This document shows positions 58,886-64,000 of a DNA stretch of 64,000 bases, piece after piece. This DNA comes from an uncultured Lachnospiraceae bacterium. Its GTDB lineage: Bacteria > Bacillota > Clostridia > Lachnospirales > Lachnospiraceae. The stretch spans positions 1-64,000 of the forward strand of contig OMXP01000004.1 of the NCBI GenBank assembly GCA_900315055.1, given 5' to 3'. Position numbers and translations under genes: made by a program. Within the stretch, counting starts at the first letter, position 1, and every line of letters starts with the position of its first letter. The notes under the pieces are model-generated. The model saw only the letters and a list, made by a program, of their open reading frames with translations, had not been told where the DNA came from and made no database searches.

Positions 58886-58932
58886 AAAAACGCCGCCGAC
58901 TTACAACACCATCTGTGCTGTACGCCGGCGGC
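58886..58932 (-). terminator. Terminator of the tandem micro-protein genes
   Basis: On the minus strand, GCCGCCG / CGGCGGC with a 27-base loop, then GUUUUU. It lies 46 bases after the second micro-protein stop. Confidence 0.7.
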
Positions 58933-58977
58933 TTACTATTATCCTGACTCATTTGGGGATTCCCTTCTCTTTCCTGT

Positions 58978-59058
58978 CTATCCTCTTGCATACATGTGAT
59001 TCGGGAACAGCTCACCAAATCTCATCAGAAAATCAGCGATTTCTCTTAAGACCTTCAT
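58978..59058 (-). CDS. 26-residue micro-protein A, unknown family
   Basis: Starts MKVLREIADFL, continues MRFGELFPNHMYARG. It matches micro-protein B at 21 of 26 residues, with the two ends and FGE-FP-HMYA core kept. Between the two genes 13 codons differ, eight only synonymously, which argues for selection on the protein. GAGAGG lies seven to eight bases before the ATG. No membrane helix; the N-terminal half could be an amphipathic helix. I do not recognise the family and give no function. It is the downstream gene of the pair. Confidence 0.65.
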   Translation of the reverse strand: MKVLREIADFLMRFGELFPNHMYARG

Positions 59059-59108
59059 ACCTGTACCTCTCTTCCTGGTTTTTACTCTGTGCGTTGCACT
59101 TCTTCACT

Positions 59109-59189
59109 TCAGCCCTTTGCGTACATATGCTCCGGGAACATTTCACCGAACTCTTTCAGAAAATCAGCAATCTCTCTTAAAACCTTCAT
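59109..59189 (-). CDS. 26-residue micro-protein B, unknown family
   Basis: Starts MKVLREIADFL, continues KEFGEMFPEHMYAKG. GGAGG lies five bases before the ATG, a strong site. Fifty bases separate its stop from the start of copy A. A hairpin (GGTGTTCC / GGGACACC) lies in the leader at about 59207-59228, and AT-rich sequence near 59280-59325 could hold the promoter. Paralogue of A, so the pair is a tandem duplication. Function unknown. Confidence 0.68.
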   Translation of the reverse strand: MKVLREIADFLKEFGEMFPEHMYAKG

Positions 59190-59387
59190 TTTATCCTCCA
59201 ATCCGGTGTCCCTTATGTGGAACACCCTGTTGTTGTTTCTCTTTGTGCCTAAAGAATATCACCAACCCGTTATCATGTTAAATACATATTGTAGAGGTAA
59301 AATTATACGAATTTAATATAATAGCGCGGGCCGCTGCGGGATGATAGAATCAGGACAGAACGACACAGATTGTTGGAGATCAGGGGA

Positions 59388-61244
59388 ATGGAGGCTGTTT
59401 TGGAAGCACTGGTTCTGATGATTCTGGCACTGCTTGGCTGGGCACTGCCGCGTATTCTGCGCTGCCGGAATGAACAGGAAAAGGACAATGAGGGAAAGGG
59501 GAAGGCAAAGGGCCTCAAGGGGCTGAAAAAGCGCCTGTTGCGCCCTACCGGGGTGGATATCCGGCGGTTTCTGCTCTCGCTCCTTATCACCCTGGTGATT
59601 CTTGCCATACTCTATTACTTTACGCTCCCTGCCATGAACCCGAAGAGTGCGGGCTTCTGGGTGTTTCTGTTCGGGGCGGTGCTGCTTCTCGATCTTAGCT
59701 ACCGGGGGCTTTGCGCCATTCTCGTCTACCGGCATGCAAAGGGCGGGGATCATGCGTTTTCCAGGGCGCGCTTTGGCGCAAGCGGTGCGATCCTTTTCAT
59801 CCTTCGGGCAGCACTCCTCGCCCTTATTGCCCTGCCGCTTCTTATTGCCCTCTTTGGCAGTGCGCCCTTCTTTCATGCAAGAGCCTACAGCAGGATTCTG
59901 ACCGTTACGGACGGGGACGTGACGGATATCCCGTCCGTTGAGGGAACAAGTTCCATCGCCCTCATGGACACCCAGTCCGCGGCAAAGCTCGGAAGCCGGG
60001 AGATGGGATCCCTCTCGTCCGTCATCAGCCAGTACGAAGTTTCCGCCTACACGCAGATCAACTACCACGACGCCCCGGTAAAGACCTCTCCCCTTCGCTA
60101 TGCGGGATTCTTCAAGTGGATCGGGAACCACAAGAACGGCGTCCCGGGCTATGTTCTCGTGGATCCGGTGCGCATGGAGGCGGACTACAACGCCCTGCCG
60201 CAGGGCATGATCTATGTCCCGTCTGCCTATCTTCAGGAGGACCTCTCCCGGAGGATTCGCTTCCGGTATCCCACAAAGATGTTTACAAACGTTCACTTCG
60301 AGATCGACGAGGACGGCAATCCCTGGTATGTGGCGAGCGTCTGTGACCACACGATCGGCCTTTTTGGCGGAACGCAGGTCGTCGGTGCGATCCTTGTGAA
60401 TCCCGTGACCGGGGACATGGAGTACTGCGATGTCTCGGAGGTCCCGCAGTGGGTGGACTGCGTCTTCCCGGGGGAGCTCATCTGCGAGCAGTACAACAAC
60501 TACGCCCAGCTCTCCGGCGGGTTCTGGAACTCGATCATCGGGCAGGTCGGGTGCCGCAGGGTGACCGAGGCGGCGGGAACGAGCGAGCAGGACGCGGCCT
60601 CGGACTACGGCTACATCGCAAAGAACGGGGACGTCTGGGTCTACACGGGTGTCACCTCGGTAAACACGGACTCCAGCAACATCGGCTTTATCCTCTCCAA
60701 TCAGAGAACCGAAGAGACGCTGTTCGTCTCCTGTGCCGGAGCAGACGAGTTCTCCGGCATGGCGGCTGCCGAGGGCGAGGTACAGGAGAAGGGCTATCAG
60801 GCATCCTTCCCGTCTCTTATTCTCGTCGACGGCAATCCGACCTACATCATGGTGCTCAAGGACGACAACGGCCTCGTGAAGATGTACGCGGCGGTGAATG
60901 TCGAGCAGTACAACATGGTTGCGACTGCGGCAACACAGGCGGACTGCATCGGGAAGTACCGGGCACTGGTCGGCGGCGAAATCAGCCAGGAGGAGGCAAT
61001 CGGCGAGGAGACTCCGGAGACCGAGACGGACACTTCGGGGTATGAGACAAAGACCGTTACGATCCAAAAGCTCCAGACCATCGACCGGGACGGCAACACC
61101 TGGCTCTACCTCGTGGATACCGACGACAACATTTACTGCGCAAAGTACGAGGACGTCATCGGCATGCTGCTGTATGAGGAAGGGGACCGGATCACGATCC
61201 TCACGGACGGCACGAACTTTGCCCTGCCGGATACGGCGGACTAG
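59388..61244 (+). CDS. Polytopic membrane protein with large extracellular domain, unknown function
   Basis: 618 residues from ATG 59388; the frame also opens at TTG 59370. Four predicted helices (about 4-25, 60-82, 87-110, 135-165) are followed by an exported domain of about 430 residues with GNPWYVASVCDHTIGLFGG, NPVTGDMEYCDVSEVPQWVD, and AEGEVQEKGYQASFPSL. The repeated strand pattern suggests a beta-rich fold. I do not recognise a named family. No operon partner upstream; larB starts 60 bases downstream. Confidence 0.72.
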   Translation: MEAVLEALVLMILALLGWALPRILRCRNEQEKDNEGKGKAKGLKGLKKRLLRPTGVDIRRFLLSLLITLVILAILYYFTLPAMNPKSAGFWVFLFGAVLLLDLSYRGLCAILVYRHAKGGDHAFSRARFGASGAILFILRAALLALIALPLLIALFGSAPFFHARAYSRILTVTDGDVTDIPSVEGTSSIALMDTQSAAKLGSREMGSLSSVISQYEVSAYTQINYHDAPVKTSPLRYAGFFKWIGNHKNGVPGYVLVDPVRMEADYNALPQGMIYVPSAYLQEDLSRRIRFRYPTKMFTNVHFEIDEDGNPWYVASVCDHTIGLFGGTQVVGAILVNPVTGDMEYCDVSEVPQWVDCVFPGELICEQYNNYAQLSGGFWNSIIGQVGCRRVTEAAGTSEQDAASDYGYIAKNGDVWVYTGVTSVNTDSSNIGFILSNQRTEETLFVSCAGADEFSGMAAAEGEVQEKGYQASFPSLILVDGNPTYIMVLKDDNGLVKMYAAVNVEQYNMVATAATQADCIGKYRALVGGEISQEEAIGEETPETETDTSGYETKTVTIQKLQTIDRDGNTWLYLVDTDDNIYCAKYEDVIGMLLYEEGDRITILTDGTNFALPDTAD

Positions 61245-61303
61245 GAAGGATACGCCACGTTTTCCCGGGATTGGTGTTTTCCATTTCGGCGGGGATCCTT
61301 ATA

Positions 61304-62080
61304 ATGAATGGCATGAATCAGACGGAATGCAAAACACTGCTGGAATCGTATAAGAAGGGGGAGGTTTCCGAGGAAGAGGTGCTGCTGCGCCTTCGGGAGG
61401 CTCCCTATGAGGATCTTGGCTTTGCAAAGCTCGATCATCAGCGCGCGATGCGAACCGGAGCAGCCGAGGTGATCTACGGCGCCGGAAAGACGAAGGAGCA
61501 GATCGCTACAATCGCAGACGCTGCCTGGAGAGCGGGGCAGAAGACCATCCTCATCACGAGGATCTCCAGGGAGAAGGCGGACTATCTCATCGCCGGAGAA
61601 CACGGATTCTGTGTCTCCTACAACGAGACCGCGCAGGCGGCGATCGCGGGCAAGGTGCCGGAGGCTGACGGACTCGGGAGCATTGTCATTGCAACCGGCG
61701 GGACGAGCGACCAGAGAGTTGCGGAGGAGGCCTATGTGACGGCGAGAGCTCTTGGCAACGATACGGTGCGCCTTTATGACGTCGGTGTTGCGGGACTCCA
61801 CCGTCTTCTCGACAACCTGGATCCTCTGATGGAGGCCAATGTCGTCATCGCGATCGCCGGCATGGAGGGCGCTCTTGCCTCCGTGATCGGAGGGCTTGTC
61901 GACTGTCCCGTCATCGCGGTCCCGACCAGCGTCGGCTACGGCGCGAACTTCGGCGGACTCTCGGCACTTCTCTCCATGCTCAACTCCTGCGCGAGCGGGG
62001 TCAGCGTCGTCAACATCGACAACGGCTTCGGTGCCGCCTTCCAGGCGAGCATGATCAATCACCCGAAACATCTGAACTAG
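61304..62080 (+). CDS. larB: LarB, pyridinium-3,5-biscarboxylic acid mononucleotide synthase
   Basis: 258 residues from ATG 61304, nine bases after GGGG; another ATG lies nine bases on, and the frame opens at TTG 61271. LarB carboxylates and cleaves nicotinic acid adenine dinucleotide, the first step to the nickel-pincer cofactor. N-terminal region, then the PurE-like domain with IVIATGGTSDQRVAEEAYV and IAGMEGALASVIGGLV, PTSVGYGANFGGLSALLSML. First gene of larB-larC-larE. Confidence 0.93.
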   Translation: MNGMNQTECKTLLESYKKGEVSEEEVLLRLREAPYEDLGFAKLDHQRAMRTGAAEVIYGAGKTKEQIATIADAAWRAGQKTILITRISREKADYLIAGEHGFCVSYNETAQAAIAGKVPEADGLGSIVIATGGTSDQRVAEEAYVTARALGNDTVRLYDVGVAGLHRLLDNLDPLMEANVVIAIAGMEGALASVIGGLVDCPVIAVPTSVGYGANFGGLSALLSMLNSCASGVSVVNIDNGFGAAFQASMINHPKHLN

Positions 62081-62093
62081 AAGAAGGAAACAT

Positions 62094-63353
62094 ATGCGCA
62101 CCCTGTATCTGGAACTGAACATGGGGGCTGCGGGGGACATGCTCACCGCGGCCCTTCTTGAACTTCTGCCAAAAGACAGGCAGGAAAACGTCCTGCACAC
62201 CCTGAACGGCCTCTTCCCCGGAAGAGTGCATGTGGAGAGGCAAAGCCTTGTAAAGTGCGGCATCCCCGCAACGCATCTTCAGGTGATCGTGGACGGAGAG
62301 GAAGAAGAGAGCGTGGACGAGAACGCCCATGATCACGGGCATGAACACGAGCATCCTCATGACCATGATCATGAGAACGGCCATGACCATGATCACGAAC
62401 ATCACCACCACCATCACACATCCCTGGCCCAGATCGAAGAGATCGTAAACACTCTTCCGGTAGATCCTGCCGTGAAGACGGATATCCTTTCGGTGTATCA
62501 TCTGCTGGCCGAGGCGGAGGGACATGCCCACGGGATGCCGGTGGATCAGATCCACTTCCATGAGGTCGGAAGCCTCGATGCGGTGGTGGACATCTCTGCT
62601 GTCTGCGTCCTGATGCATGAGATCGCACCGGACGTCGTGCTCGCTTCCCCGGTCCACACGGGACAGGGAGAGGTGCGCTGCGCCCACGGGATCCTCCCCG
62701 TGCCGACGCCGGCAACCGAGTATCTTCTCCGCGGGATTCCGACCTATGCAAGGGAGGACATCACGGGAGAGCTCTGCACCCCGACCGGGGCAGCGCTTCT
62801 CCGGTACTTTGTAAAGGACTTCACATCCCGTCCGGTGATGAGAGTTGAACAGACAGGCTATGGCTGCGGGAAGAAGGACTTTGCCCTGGCAAATATCGTC
62901 CGGGCGTTCCTCGGGGAGACGAAGGAGGAGCCTGCCGATCAGGTGGCAGAGCTTTCCTGCAACGTCGATGACATGACAGCCGAGGAGATCGGCTATGCTG
63001 TGGAGGCCCTCTTTGCGGCGGGAGCACGGGATGTATTCACGGTGCCGGCATACATGAAGAAGAACCGCCCGGGGACGCTGATTACGGTAATCACCGACAG
63101 GGAACACGAAGAGGCGATTGTCCGGACCCTCTTTGCGAACACGACCACCATCGGCGTCCGCAAGACGGTCTGTGAGAGGTATGTGCTGAATCGCACCGAA
63201 AAGACGATGGACACCGCATACGGGCCTGTCCGCGTCAAGACTTCCACCGGGTACGGCACGACCCGCACAAAGGTAGAGTATGACGATATCGCCAGGATCG
63301 CGAAGGAGCAGAACAGAAGCCTTCGGGACATCAGAGAGGAGCTGAAACTTTGA
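62094..63353 (+). CDS. larC: LarC, nickel-insertion cyclometallase
   Basis: 419 residues in one frame; in Lactobacillus plantarum larC is read through a frameshift, which is not needed here. Starts LYLELNMGAAGDM, has a His-rich loop at residues 79-108 (17 His) likely to hold nickel, and the conserved AAGARDVFTVPAYMKKNRPG and GVRKTVCER blocks. LarC uses CTP to insert Ni into the pincer. Thirteen bases after larB; the larE start overlaps its stop. Confidence 0.95.
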   Translation: MRTLYLELNMGAAGDMLTAALLELLPKDRQENVLHTLNGLFPGRVHVERQSLVKCGIPATHLQVIVDGEEEESVDENAHDHGHEHEHPHDHDHENGHDHDHEHHHHHHTSLAQIEEIVNTLPVDPAVKTDILSVYHLLAEAEGHAHGMPVDQIHFHEVGSLDAVVDISAVCVLMHEIAPDVVLASPVHTGQGEVRCAHGILPVPTPATEYLLRGIPTYAREDITGELCTPTGAALLRYFVKDFTSRPVMRVEQTGYGCGKKDFALANIVRAFLGETKEEPADQVAELSCNVDDMTAEEIGYAVEALFAAGARDVFTVPAYMKKNRPGTLITVITDREHEEAIVRTLFANTTTIGVRKTVCERYVLNRTEKTMDTAYGPVRVKTSTGYGTTRTKVEYDDIARIAKEQNRSLRDIREELKL

Positions 63354-64000
63354 CCACCGACGAAAAGTACCGGCAGCTGCTGGAGAATCTCCGTTCTTTG
63401 GGGAGCGTGATTGTTGCCTTCTCCGGGGGCGTTGATTCGACATTTCTTGCAAAGGCAGCCCATGAGGCCCTGGGAGATCACATGATGGCGGTGACGGGAA
63501 CGTCCCTTGCCCTGCCGAAGATGGACGAGAAGGAGGGCGAGGCGTTCTGCAAAAAGGAGGGCATCCTGCACCGGGAGATGCCGGTGAACGAGCTCTCCAT
63601 TCCGGAGTACGTCGCAAATCCCTCGAACCGCTGCTATTACTGCAAGAAAAACCTGTTCCAGCACCTTCTGGAGCTGGCAGAAAAGGAGCACTACGCGGCA
63701 GTCTGCGAGGGCTCCAATGTCGATGACCTTTCGGATTACCGCCCCGGCCTTCAGGCCATCCGCGAACTTGGCATCCACAGCCCGCTCCAGGACGCGGGCC
63801 TTACGAAGGCGGAGATTCGGGAGCTCTCGAAAAAGCTCGATCTCCCCACCTGGGACAAGCCATCCGCTGCCTGCCTTGCCTCGCGCTTTGTCTACGGCGA
63901 GCACATCACAAAGGACAAGCTCCTGAAGGTCGGAGAGGCGGAGGAGTATCTCCACGGCCTCGGGTTTACGCAGCTGCGGGTGCGCATGCACGGAGAGAGC
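63350..64000 (+). CDS. larE: LarE, sulfur transferase of nickel-pincer cofactor synthesis (cut by window end)
   Basis: 217 residues visible, start TTG 63350 overlapping the larC stop, with AGAGGAG seven bases upstream. LarE adenylates and thiolates the pyridinium dicarboxylate. PP-loop SGGVDS at 25-30. Cysteines C95 and C98 (NRCYYCKKN) and C175 (SAACLASRF) are present; C175 aligns with the sacrificial Cys176 of L. plantarum, and three-Cys LarE proteins are reported to hold a [4Fe-4S] cluster. No larA is in view; it may lie just outside. Confidence 0.92.
   Translation, partial: MTTDEKYRQLLENLRSLGSVIVAFSGGVDSTFLAKAAHEALGDHMMAVTGTSLALPKMDEKEGEAFCKKEGILHREMPVNELSIPEYVANPSNRCYYCKKNLFQHLLELAEKEHYAAVCEGSNVDDLSDYRPGLQAIRELGIHSPLQDAGLTKAEIRELSKKLDLPTWDKPSAACLASRFVYGEHITKDKLLKVGEAEEYLHGLGFTQLRVRMHGES

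What the first reader, a model, noticed from the sequence alone, without database searches (positions are those of the whole stretch)
58978..59189. Two tandem paralogous 26-residue micro-proteins
Two 81-base genes on the minus strand encode peptides with 21 of 26 identical residues. Of 13 differing codons, eight are synonymous, and each gene has its own good ribosome site, with a terminator after the pair. This is direct evidence of a small coding family that standard length cutoffs miss. No family is recognised; it is soluble and amphipathic rather than a membrane toxin. It may be a secreted or regulatory peptide.
Basis: partly seen in the sequence, partly recalled or inferred. Interest (0 to 1): 0.75.

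Follow-up and report, generated by a model that had tools for sequence, protein, structure and literature searches.

The report
Clade-restricted tandem 26-residue micro-protein genes
Two real, very small genes that ordinary gene finders are likely to miss encode near-identical 26-residue helical peptides; relatives in one clade of uncultured rumen and gut Lachnospiraceae carry the same gene on its own small transcript, usually followed by two even smaller conserved peptide genes, and what they do is unknown.

Summary
Two 81-base ORFs (59189-59109 and 59058-58978, minus strand) encode MKVLREIADFLKEFGEMFPEHMYAKG and MKVLREIADFLMRFGELFPNHMYARG (21/26 identical; 18 nucleotide changes, 12 at third positions; pN/pS 0.18). 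They are the only copies in their genome. Homologues occur in 9 of 62 genomes of the genus (own included), and in a tenth species elsewhere, always under protein-level selection, with M1, E6, F10, G15, F18, H21, M22 invariant. Nothing convincing appears in 334 genera of the family, an order sample, phages, plasmids or viral contigs.

In relatives the 26-mer ("A") is followed by two more conserved micro-ORFs, B (...RKLNKRGLK*) and C (...SDRTDI[NQ]*), mostly abutted or overlapping, closed by a terminator and found only beside A. The window species has a second A and no recognisable B or C. The unit has its own promoter, a hairpin before its ribosome site, and no fixed neighbours.

Best reading: a clade-specific small-protein transcription unit whose core product is an amphipathic helix, most likely docking on a partner protein. 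Coding is near certain; function is inference. No known family matches. New member of the known kind "lineage-specific small proteins", with unusually clean multi-cistron anatomy.

The parts
59109..59189 (-). micro-gene A1 (26 codons + TGA): MKVLREIADFLKEFGEMFPEHMYAKG
58978..59058 (-). micro-gene A2 (26 codons + TAG): MKVLREIADFLMRFGELFPNHMYARG, tandem paralogue of A1
59253..59281 (-). sigma-70-type promoter TTAACA-17-TATTCT with TG before the -10
   Evidence: (on its own no better than chance), supported by the same position in relatives, e.g. TTCACA-17-TATAAC in G028
59274..59288 (-). operator-like near-palindrome TATGTATTTAACATG overlapping the -35 (TATGTATTTCACATA in G028 and G059)
59205..59226 (-). 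stem-loop GGTGTTCC-ACATAA-GGGACACC just before the A1 ribosome site; a stem-loop stands at this place in most relatives with unrelated sequence
59195..59199 (-). ribosome site GGAGG of A1
59066..59071 (-). ribosome site GAGAGG of A2 (moderate)
58886..58932 (-). intrinsic terminator: about 17 bp stem, then TTTTT
58933..58977 (-). stretch where relatives carry B and C; here neither is recognisable (possible vestige ...RKEKGIPK* without a start codon, then ATGAGTCAG... open through the terminator)

Best explanation
The pair are genuine protein-coding micro-genes, members of a 26-28-residue family (A) found in one clade of an uncultured Lachnospiraceae genus. Each unit is its own short transcript: a promoter with an operator-like site over the -35, a stem-loop ahead of the ribosome site, A, then in most species two still smaller conserved ORFs (B and C) whose starts mostly touch or overlap the preceding stop, then a terminator. 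Product A is a leaderless amphipathic helix (residues 1-17) that ends at a kink with a conserved F..HMY tail. I think it works in the cytoplasm by laying its hydrophobic face (positions 3, 4, 7, 10/11, 14, 18) on a partner protein or on itself, so tuning a cellular process under a regulated promoter, and not by piercing membranes. In the window species A was duplicated and B and C were lost or decayed, so A is the core part. Shown here: coding, conservation, unit anatomy, clade restriction, computed amphipathicity. Inferred: helix in solution (modelled only), location, partner binding, regulation.
For: Purifying selection on A in every pair, also against random changes; invariant residues; sharp separation of members from noise; clade restriction; B and C coding in frame only (pN/pS 0.18 and 0.03, against about 1 or more in the other frames) and only beside A; coupling of starts and stops; promoter, hairpin, terminator; amphipathic helix; low lipid-binding score for both window peptides; neighbours not conserved.
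Against: No expression data. No partner is known and none is encoded next to the unit. The HeliQuest-type score (formula and threshold from memory) does pass for two relatives (G059, G031), so peripheral membrane binding is open. The structure was predicted for an artificially extended 38-residue form. The promoter call is weak on its own.
Confidence: 0.42

Rival explanations
1. A is a leaderless secreted or membrane-active peptide, working like staphylococcal phenol-soluble modulins or leaderless bacteriocins: tandem, 20-30 residues, helical, exported with its start methionine.
For: Size, lack of leader, amphipathicity and tandem copies fit; independent tandem duplication in G000 and G028.
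Against: Net charge near zero and low lipid-binding score in most members; invariant polar residues E6 and H21 suggest a specific contact; no transporter or immunity gene stays beside the unit.
Confidence: 0.17
2. A is a peripheral membrane micro-protein (an amphipathic helix lying on the inner membrane surface), like SpoVM of Bacillus or AzuC of E. coli.
For: Hydrophobic face and length fit; [quoted passage not shown]
Against: Too few positive charges for most members by the lipid-binding score.
Confidence: 0.17
3. The transcript is chiefly a regulatory RNA with ORFs on board (dual-function RNA).
For: Length about 360 nt, own promoter and terminator, stable fold (z -3.7), hairpin ahead of A in most members.
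Against: Selection is plainly on the peptides; hairpin sequences differ between lineages; no Rfam match to the unit. The low fold energy rests largely on the terminator and on pairing of the duplicated stretches.
Confidence: 0.1
4. A is the precursor of a short signalling peptide (quorum sensing), read by a receptor encoded elsewhere.
For: Tiny ORF with conserved C-terminal tail HMYIGK in most members; operator-like site.
Against: No receptor or exporter beside the unit; conservation runs through the whole peptide and not only the tail; no signal peptide.
Confidence: 0.07
5. The ORFs are leader peptides that control transcription of a downstream gene by attenuation.
For: Small coupled ORFs before a terminator; a terminator-like hairpin before A in G030 and G004.
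Against: In the window all large genes beyond the terminator are on the other strand for about 10 kb, and in most relatives the next gene is convergent.
Confidence: 0.03
6. The ORFs are chance open frames in repeated non-coding DNA.
For: Very short ORFs are common by chance.
Against: Synonymous bias in several independent comparisons, invariant residues across species, no frameshifted copies found.
Confidence: 0.02

Closest known systems
Staphylococcal phenol-soluble modulin operons and delta-toxin (established knowledge; called small amphipathic secreted peptides in PMC10653798)
   Same: About 20-30 residues, no leader, amphipathic helix, tandem related genes on one short transcript
   Different: No sequence relation recognised; here polar residues are invariant, lipid-binding score is low, no export is shown, and relatives add two unlike micro-ORFs
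AzuC of E. coli (28 residues, small regulatory-RNA-borne protein; established knowledge and PMC7549839) and SpoVM of Bacillus (26 residues; established knowledge)
   Same: Similar size and a short helix that may sit on a surface
   Different: No sequence relation recognised; other phyla or other contexts; membrane attachment of A is not shown and is weakly predicted
Catalogued small-protein families of the microbiome (GMSC, PMC11364881; Sberro et al. 2019 as cited there)
   Same: Same kind of object: conserved small ORF under usual gene-finder cut-offs; A may already be listed there as an anonymous sequence
   Different: The catalogues themselves could not be searched here; whether any of them links A, B and C as one unit was not examined

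Membership tests
Conserved bacterial small-protein family (general kind) | Homologues in several species with selection on the amino acids | tested here: met
Conserved bacterial small-protein family (general kind) | Translated product | not testable with these tools
   needs ribosome profiling or mass spectrometry
Any family in Pfam, NCBIfam, PHROGs or PADLOC | Profile match | tested here: not met
Known RNA family (Rfam) | Covariance-model match over the unit | tested here: not met
   (the one real match, Clostridiales-1 in G015, lies outside the unit)
Phenol-soluble modulin-like peptides | Short leaderless amphipathic helix in tandem copies | tested here: met
Phenol-soluble modulin-like peptides | Dedicated exporter beside the genes or export shown | tested here: inconclusive
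   no conserved neighbour; an exporter elsewhere in the genome was not sought
Membrane-piercing small toxin (type I toxin-antitoxin) | Hydrophobic transmembrane segment | tested here: not met
   amphipathic with charged residues throughout
Leader-peptide attenuator | Co-directional regulated gene directly downstream | tested here: not met
   window: genes beyond the terminator on the other strand; relatives mostly convergent
Mobile cassette of phage or plasmid | Occurrence in phage, plasmid or viral records | tested here: not met

The most novel reading that the evidence does not exclude
The A-B-C unit is a three-peptide system: one transcript making three different conserved peptides (A 26-28 residues; B about 14-34 depending on the start; C 13-21) by coupled translation, which act together, for example as a complex or as a signal plus its modulators. 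To my knowledge such a micro-operon has not been described.
Probability: 0.15. Interest if true: 0.7.

Novelty: new member of a known kind. Interest (0 to 1): 0.42.

Why it matters
It is a clean case, resting on evolution alone, of protein-coding genes down to about 13 codons in uncultured rumen and gut bacteria, arranged as an operon of micro-ORFs. It gives a ready test set (invariant residues, two independent duplications, natural loss of B and C) for asking what such peptides do, and shows that unannotated micro-ORFs can come in conserved sets.

Tried and rejected
Protein family libraries, Rfam, PDB sequence search (only designed coiled coils at E above 2, meaningless), phage, plasmid and viral collections: nothing. 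Papers holding the peptide strings: none on these peptides. Weak profile hits in other genera cover 14-19 residues inside longer open frames (96-1646 codons); I judged them chance, though only the G718 one (L113) was looked at. The Rhodoferax pattern hit is chance. Regulon of the operator-like motif: in the carriers it marks this unit, with only scattered one-mismatch sites elsewhere. Synteny or empty-site comparison: neighbours are not conserved, so no empty site could be read. Programmed frameshift joining A, B and C: rejected because relative frames differ between lineages. C-like matches elsewhere in the genus are pieces of longer frames without the stop.

Full report
What was checked. The two ORFs are present exactly as described on the minus strand. 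They differ at 18 of 78 nucleotides, 12 of them third positions; 8 of 13 changed codons are synonymous and 21 of 26 residues are kept, which random changes in the same number never gave in 20,000 trials. The genome (98% complete) holds only these two copies.

Family. A search of relatives found homologues in eight further species of the genus. A profile search of all 62 genomes held for the genus separates members sharply (57-67 bits, next best 16). A pattern built from the invariant residues, run over one genome per species for 84,980 species, found nine uncultured Lachnospiraceae-type genomes (RUG and SUG bins, UBA2734, UBA2860, Firmicutes CAG:791) and one chance hit in Rhodoferax. Samples of 397 family genomes (334 genera) and 392 order genomes gave no convincing member outside the genus. 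A tree of a DAHP synthase shows that the carriers fall in one part of the genus; the label needs three gains or losses, and none of 500 shuffles was as low. So the family looks inherited within a clade with some losses, while its neighbours change.

Coding evidence for A. pN/pS is below 1 in every pair that differs: 0.18 for the window pair, 0.07 for the separate tandem pair in G028, 0.10 and 0.15 for sister species. M1, E6, F10, G15, F18, H21 and M22 never vary and Y23 varies once. The histidine and tyrosine codons vary synonymously, so selection is on the protein.

Unit anatomy. Reading past the 26-mer in relatives shows two further conserved micro-ORFs. B ends ...RKLNKRGLK and C contains SDRTDI, followed by N or Q and the stop in most species. 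In frame, pN/pS is 0.18 for B and 0.03 for C; in the other two frames it is about 1 or more (these are the conserved cores, chosen because they are conserved, so the contrast between frames matters more than the value). The longest B frame overlaps the A stop as ATGA in five genomes, and C starts touch or overlap the B stop in most. Relative frames differ between lineages, which excludes one programmed frameshift. A pattern for B finds six genomes of 62, all with A; C as an ORF with its stop is found only beside A. G051 has a weak B and G015 an altered C; in G031 C lies further from B. In the window neither B nor C can be recognised, and a second A stands there instead. The duplication in G028 is independent of the one in the window.

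Control elements. A sigma-70-type promoter (TTAACA-17-TATTCT) lies at 59281-59253 (on its own no better than chance), at the same place as similar pairs in relatives, for example TTCACA-17-TATAAC in G028. It overlaps a near-palindrome, TATGTATTTCACATA in G028 and G059, with one mismatch here. A stem-loop stands just before the ribosome site in the window and most relatives, with unrelated sequences; in G030 and G004 it resembles a terminator. The transcript should run from about 59246 to 58886, some 360 nt (inference).

Product. The first 18 residues have a hydrophobic moment above 97.6% or more of shuffles in every member tested and a constant hydrophobic face at positions 3, 4, 7, 10/11, 14 and 18. 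AlphaFold, given a 38-residue upstream extension because shorter input is not accepted, predicts one long helix with a break near the proline (mean pLDDT 76, about 92 in the core). Net charge is near zero for most, and a HeliQuest-type lipid-binding score (formula and threshold of 0.68 from memory) is below threshold for both window peptides and four of six relatives. I therefore favour partner binding in the cytoplasm over membrane attack, at modest confidence.

Context. Neighbours differ by lineage: ptsH (Pfam PTS-HPr) and a 624-residue protein without Pfam family in the window; plsY-like, glpK-like, or DAHP synthase with a MATE-type transporter elsewhere (names read from sequence, not family-tested). 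In the window and most relatives the next gene beyond the terminator is convergent, which argues against leader-peptide attenuation; G030 is an exception. No phage, plasmid or viral record holds the family.

Judgement. What is worth keeping is larger and more sober: a clade-specific micro-operon with three conserved peptides in its fullest form, function unknown, most likely acting through the amphipathic A peptide. Small-protein catalogues already predict ORFs of 30 bases and more (PMC11364881), so the existence of such families is not new; the linked three-ORF anatomy is the unusual part.

Noticed in passing
L007 3-169 (-), G015: A Clostridiales-1 RNA (RF01699, E 1.5e-25) lies some 200 nt downstream of the A-B unit on the same strand; no such neighbour at the other units scanned.
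   Followed up: partly
L020 7136-7671 (+), G030: A RelB-like (below cut-off) and YoeB-type toxin-antitoxin pair stands directly downstream of the A-B-C unit; the sister genome G004 (L021) lists no such pair at that place.
   Followed up: partly
L022 (G028), between its two A genes: The spacer holds a 22-codon ORF MISEYRRVRSETEQPEFSSAAR that faintly recalls C, perhaps a decayed copy from duplication of the whole unit.
   Followed up: no
window 59370-61244 (+): A 624-residue predicted membrane protein with no Pfam family, present in only five other genomes of the genus at 56-61% identity.
   Followed up: partly
window 61271-64000 (+): A cluster that looks like larB-larC-larE (nickel cofactor of lactate racemase): AIRC and Ni_insertion domains confirmed, the third read from sequence only.
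   Followed up: partly
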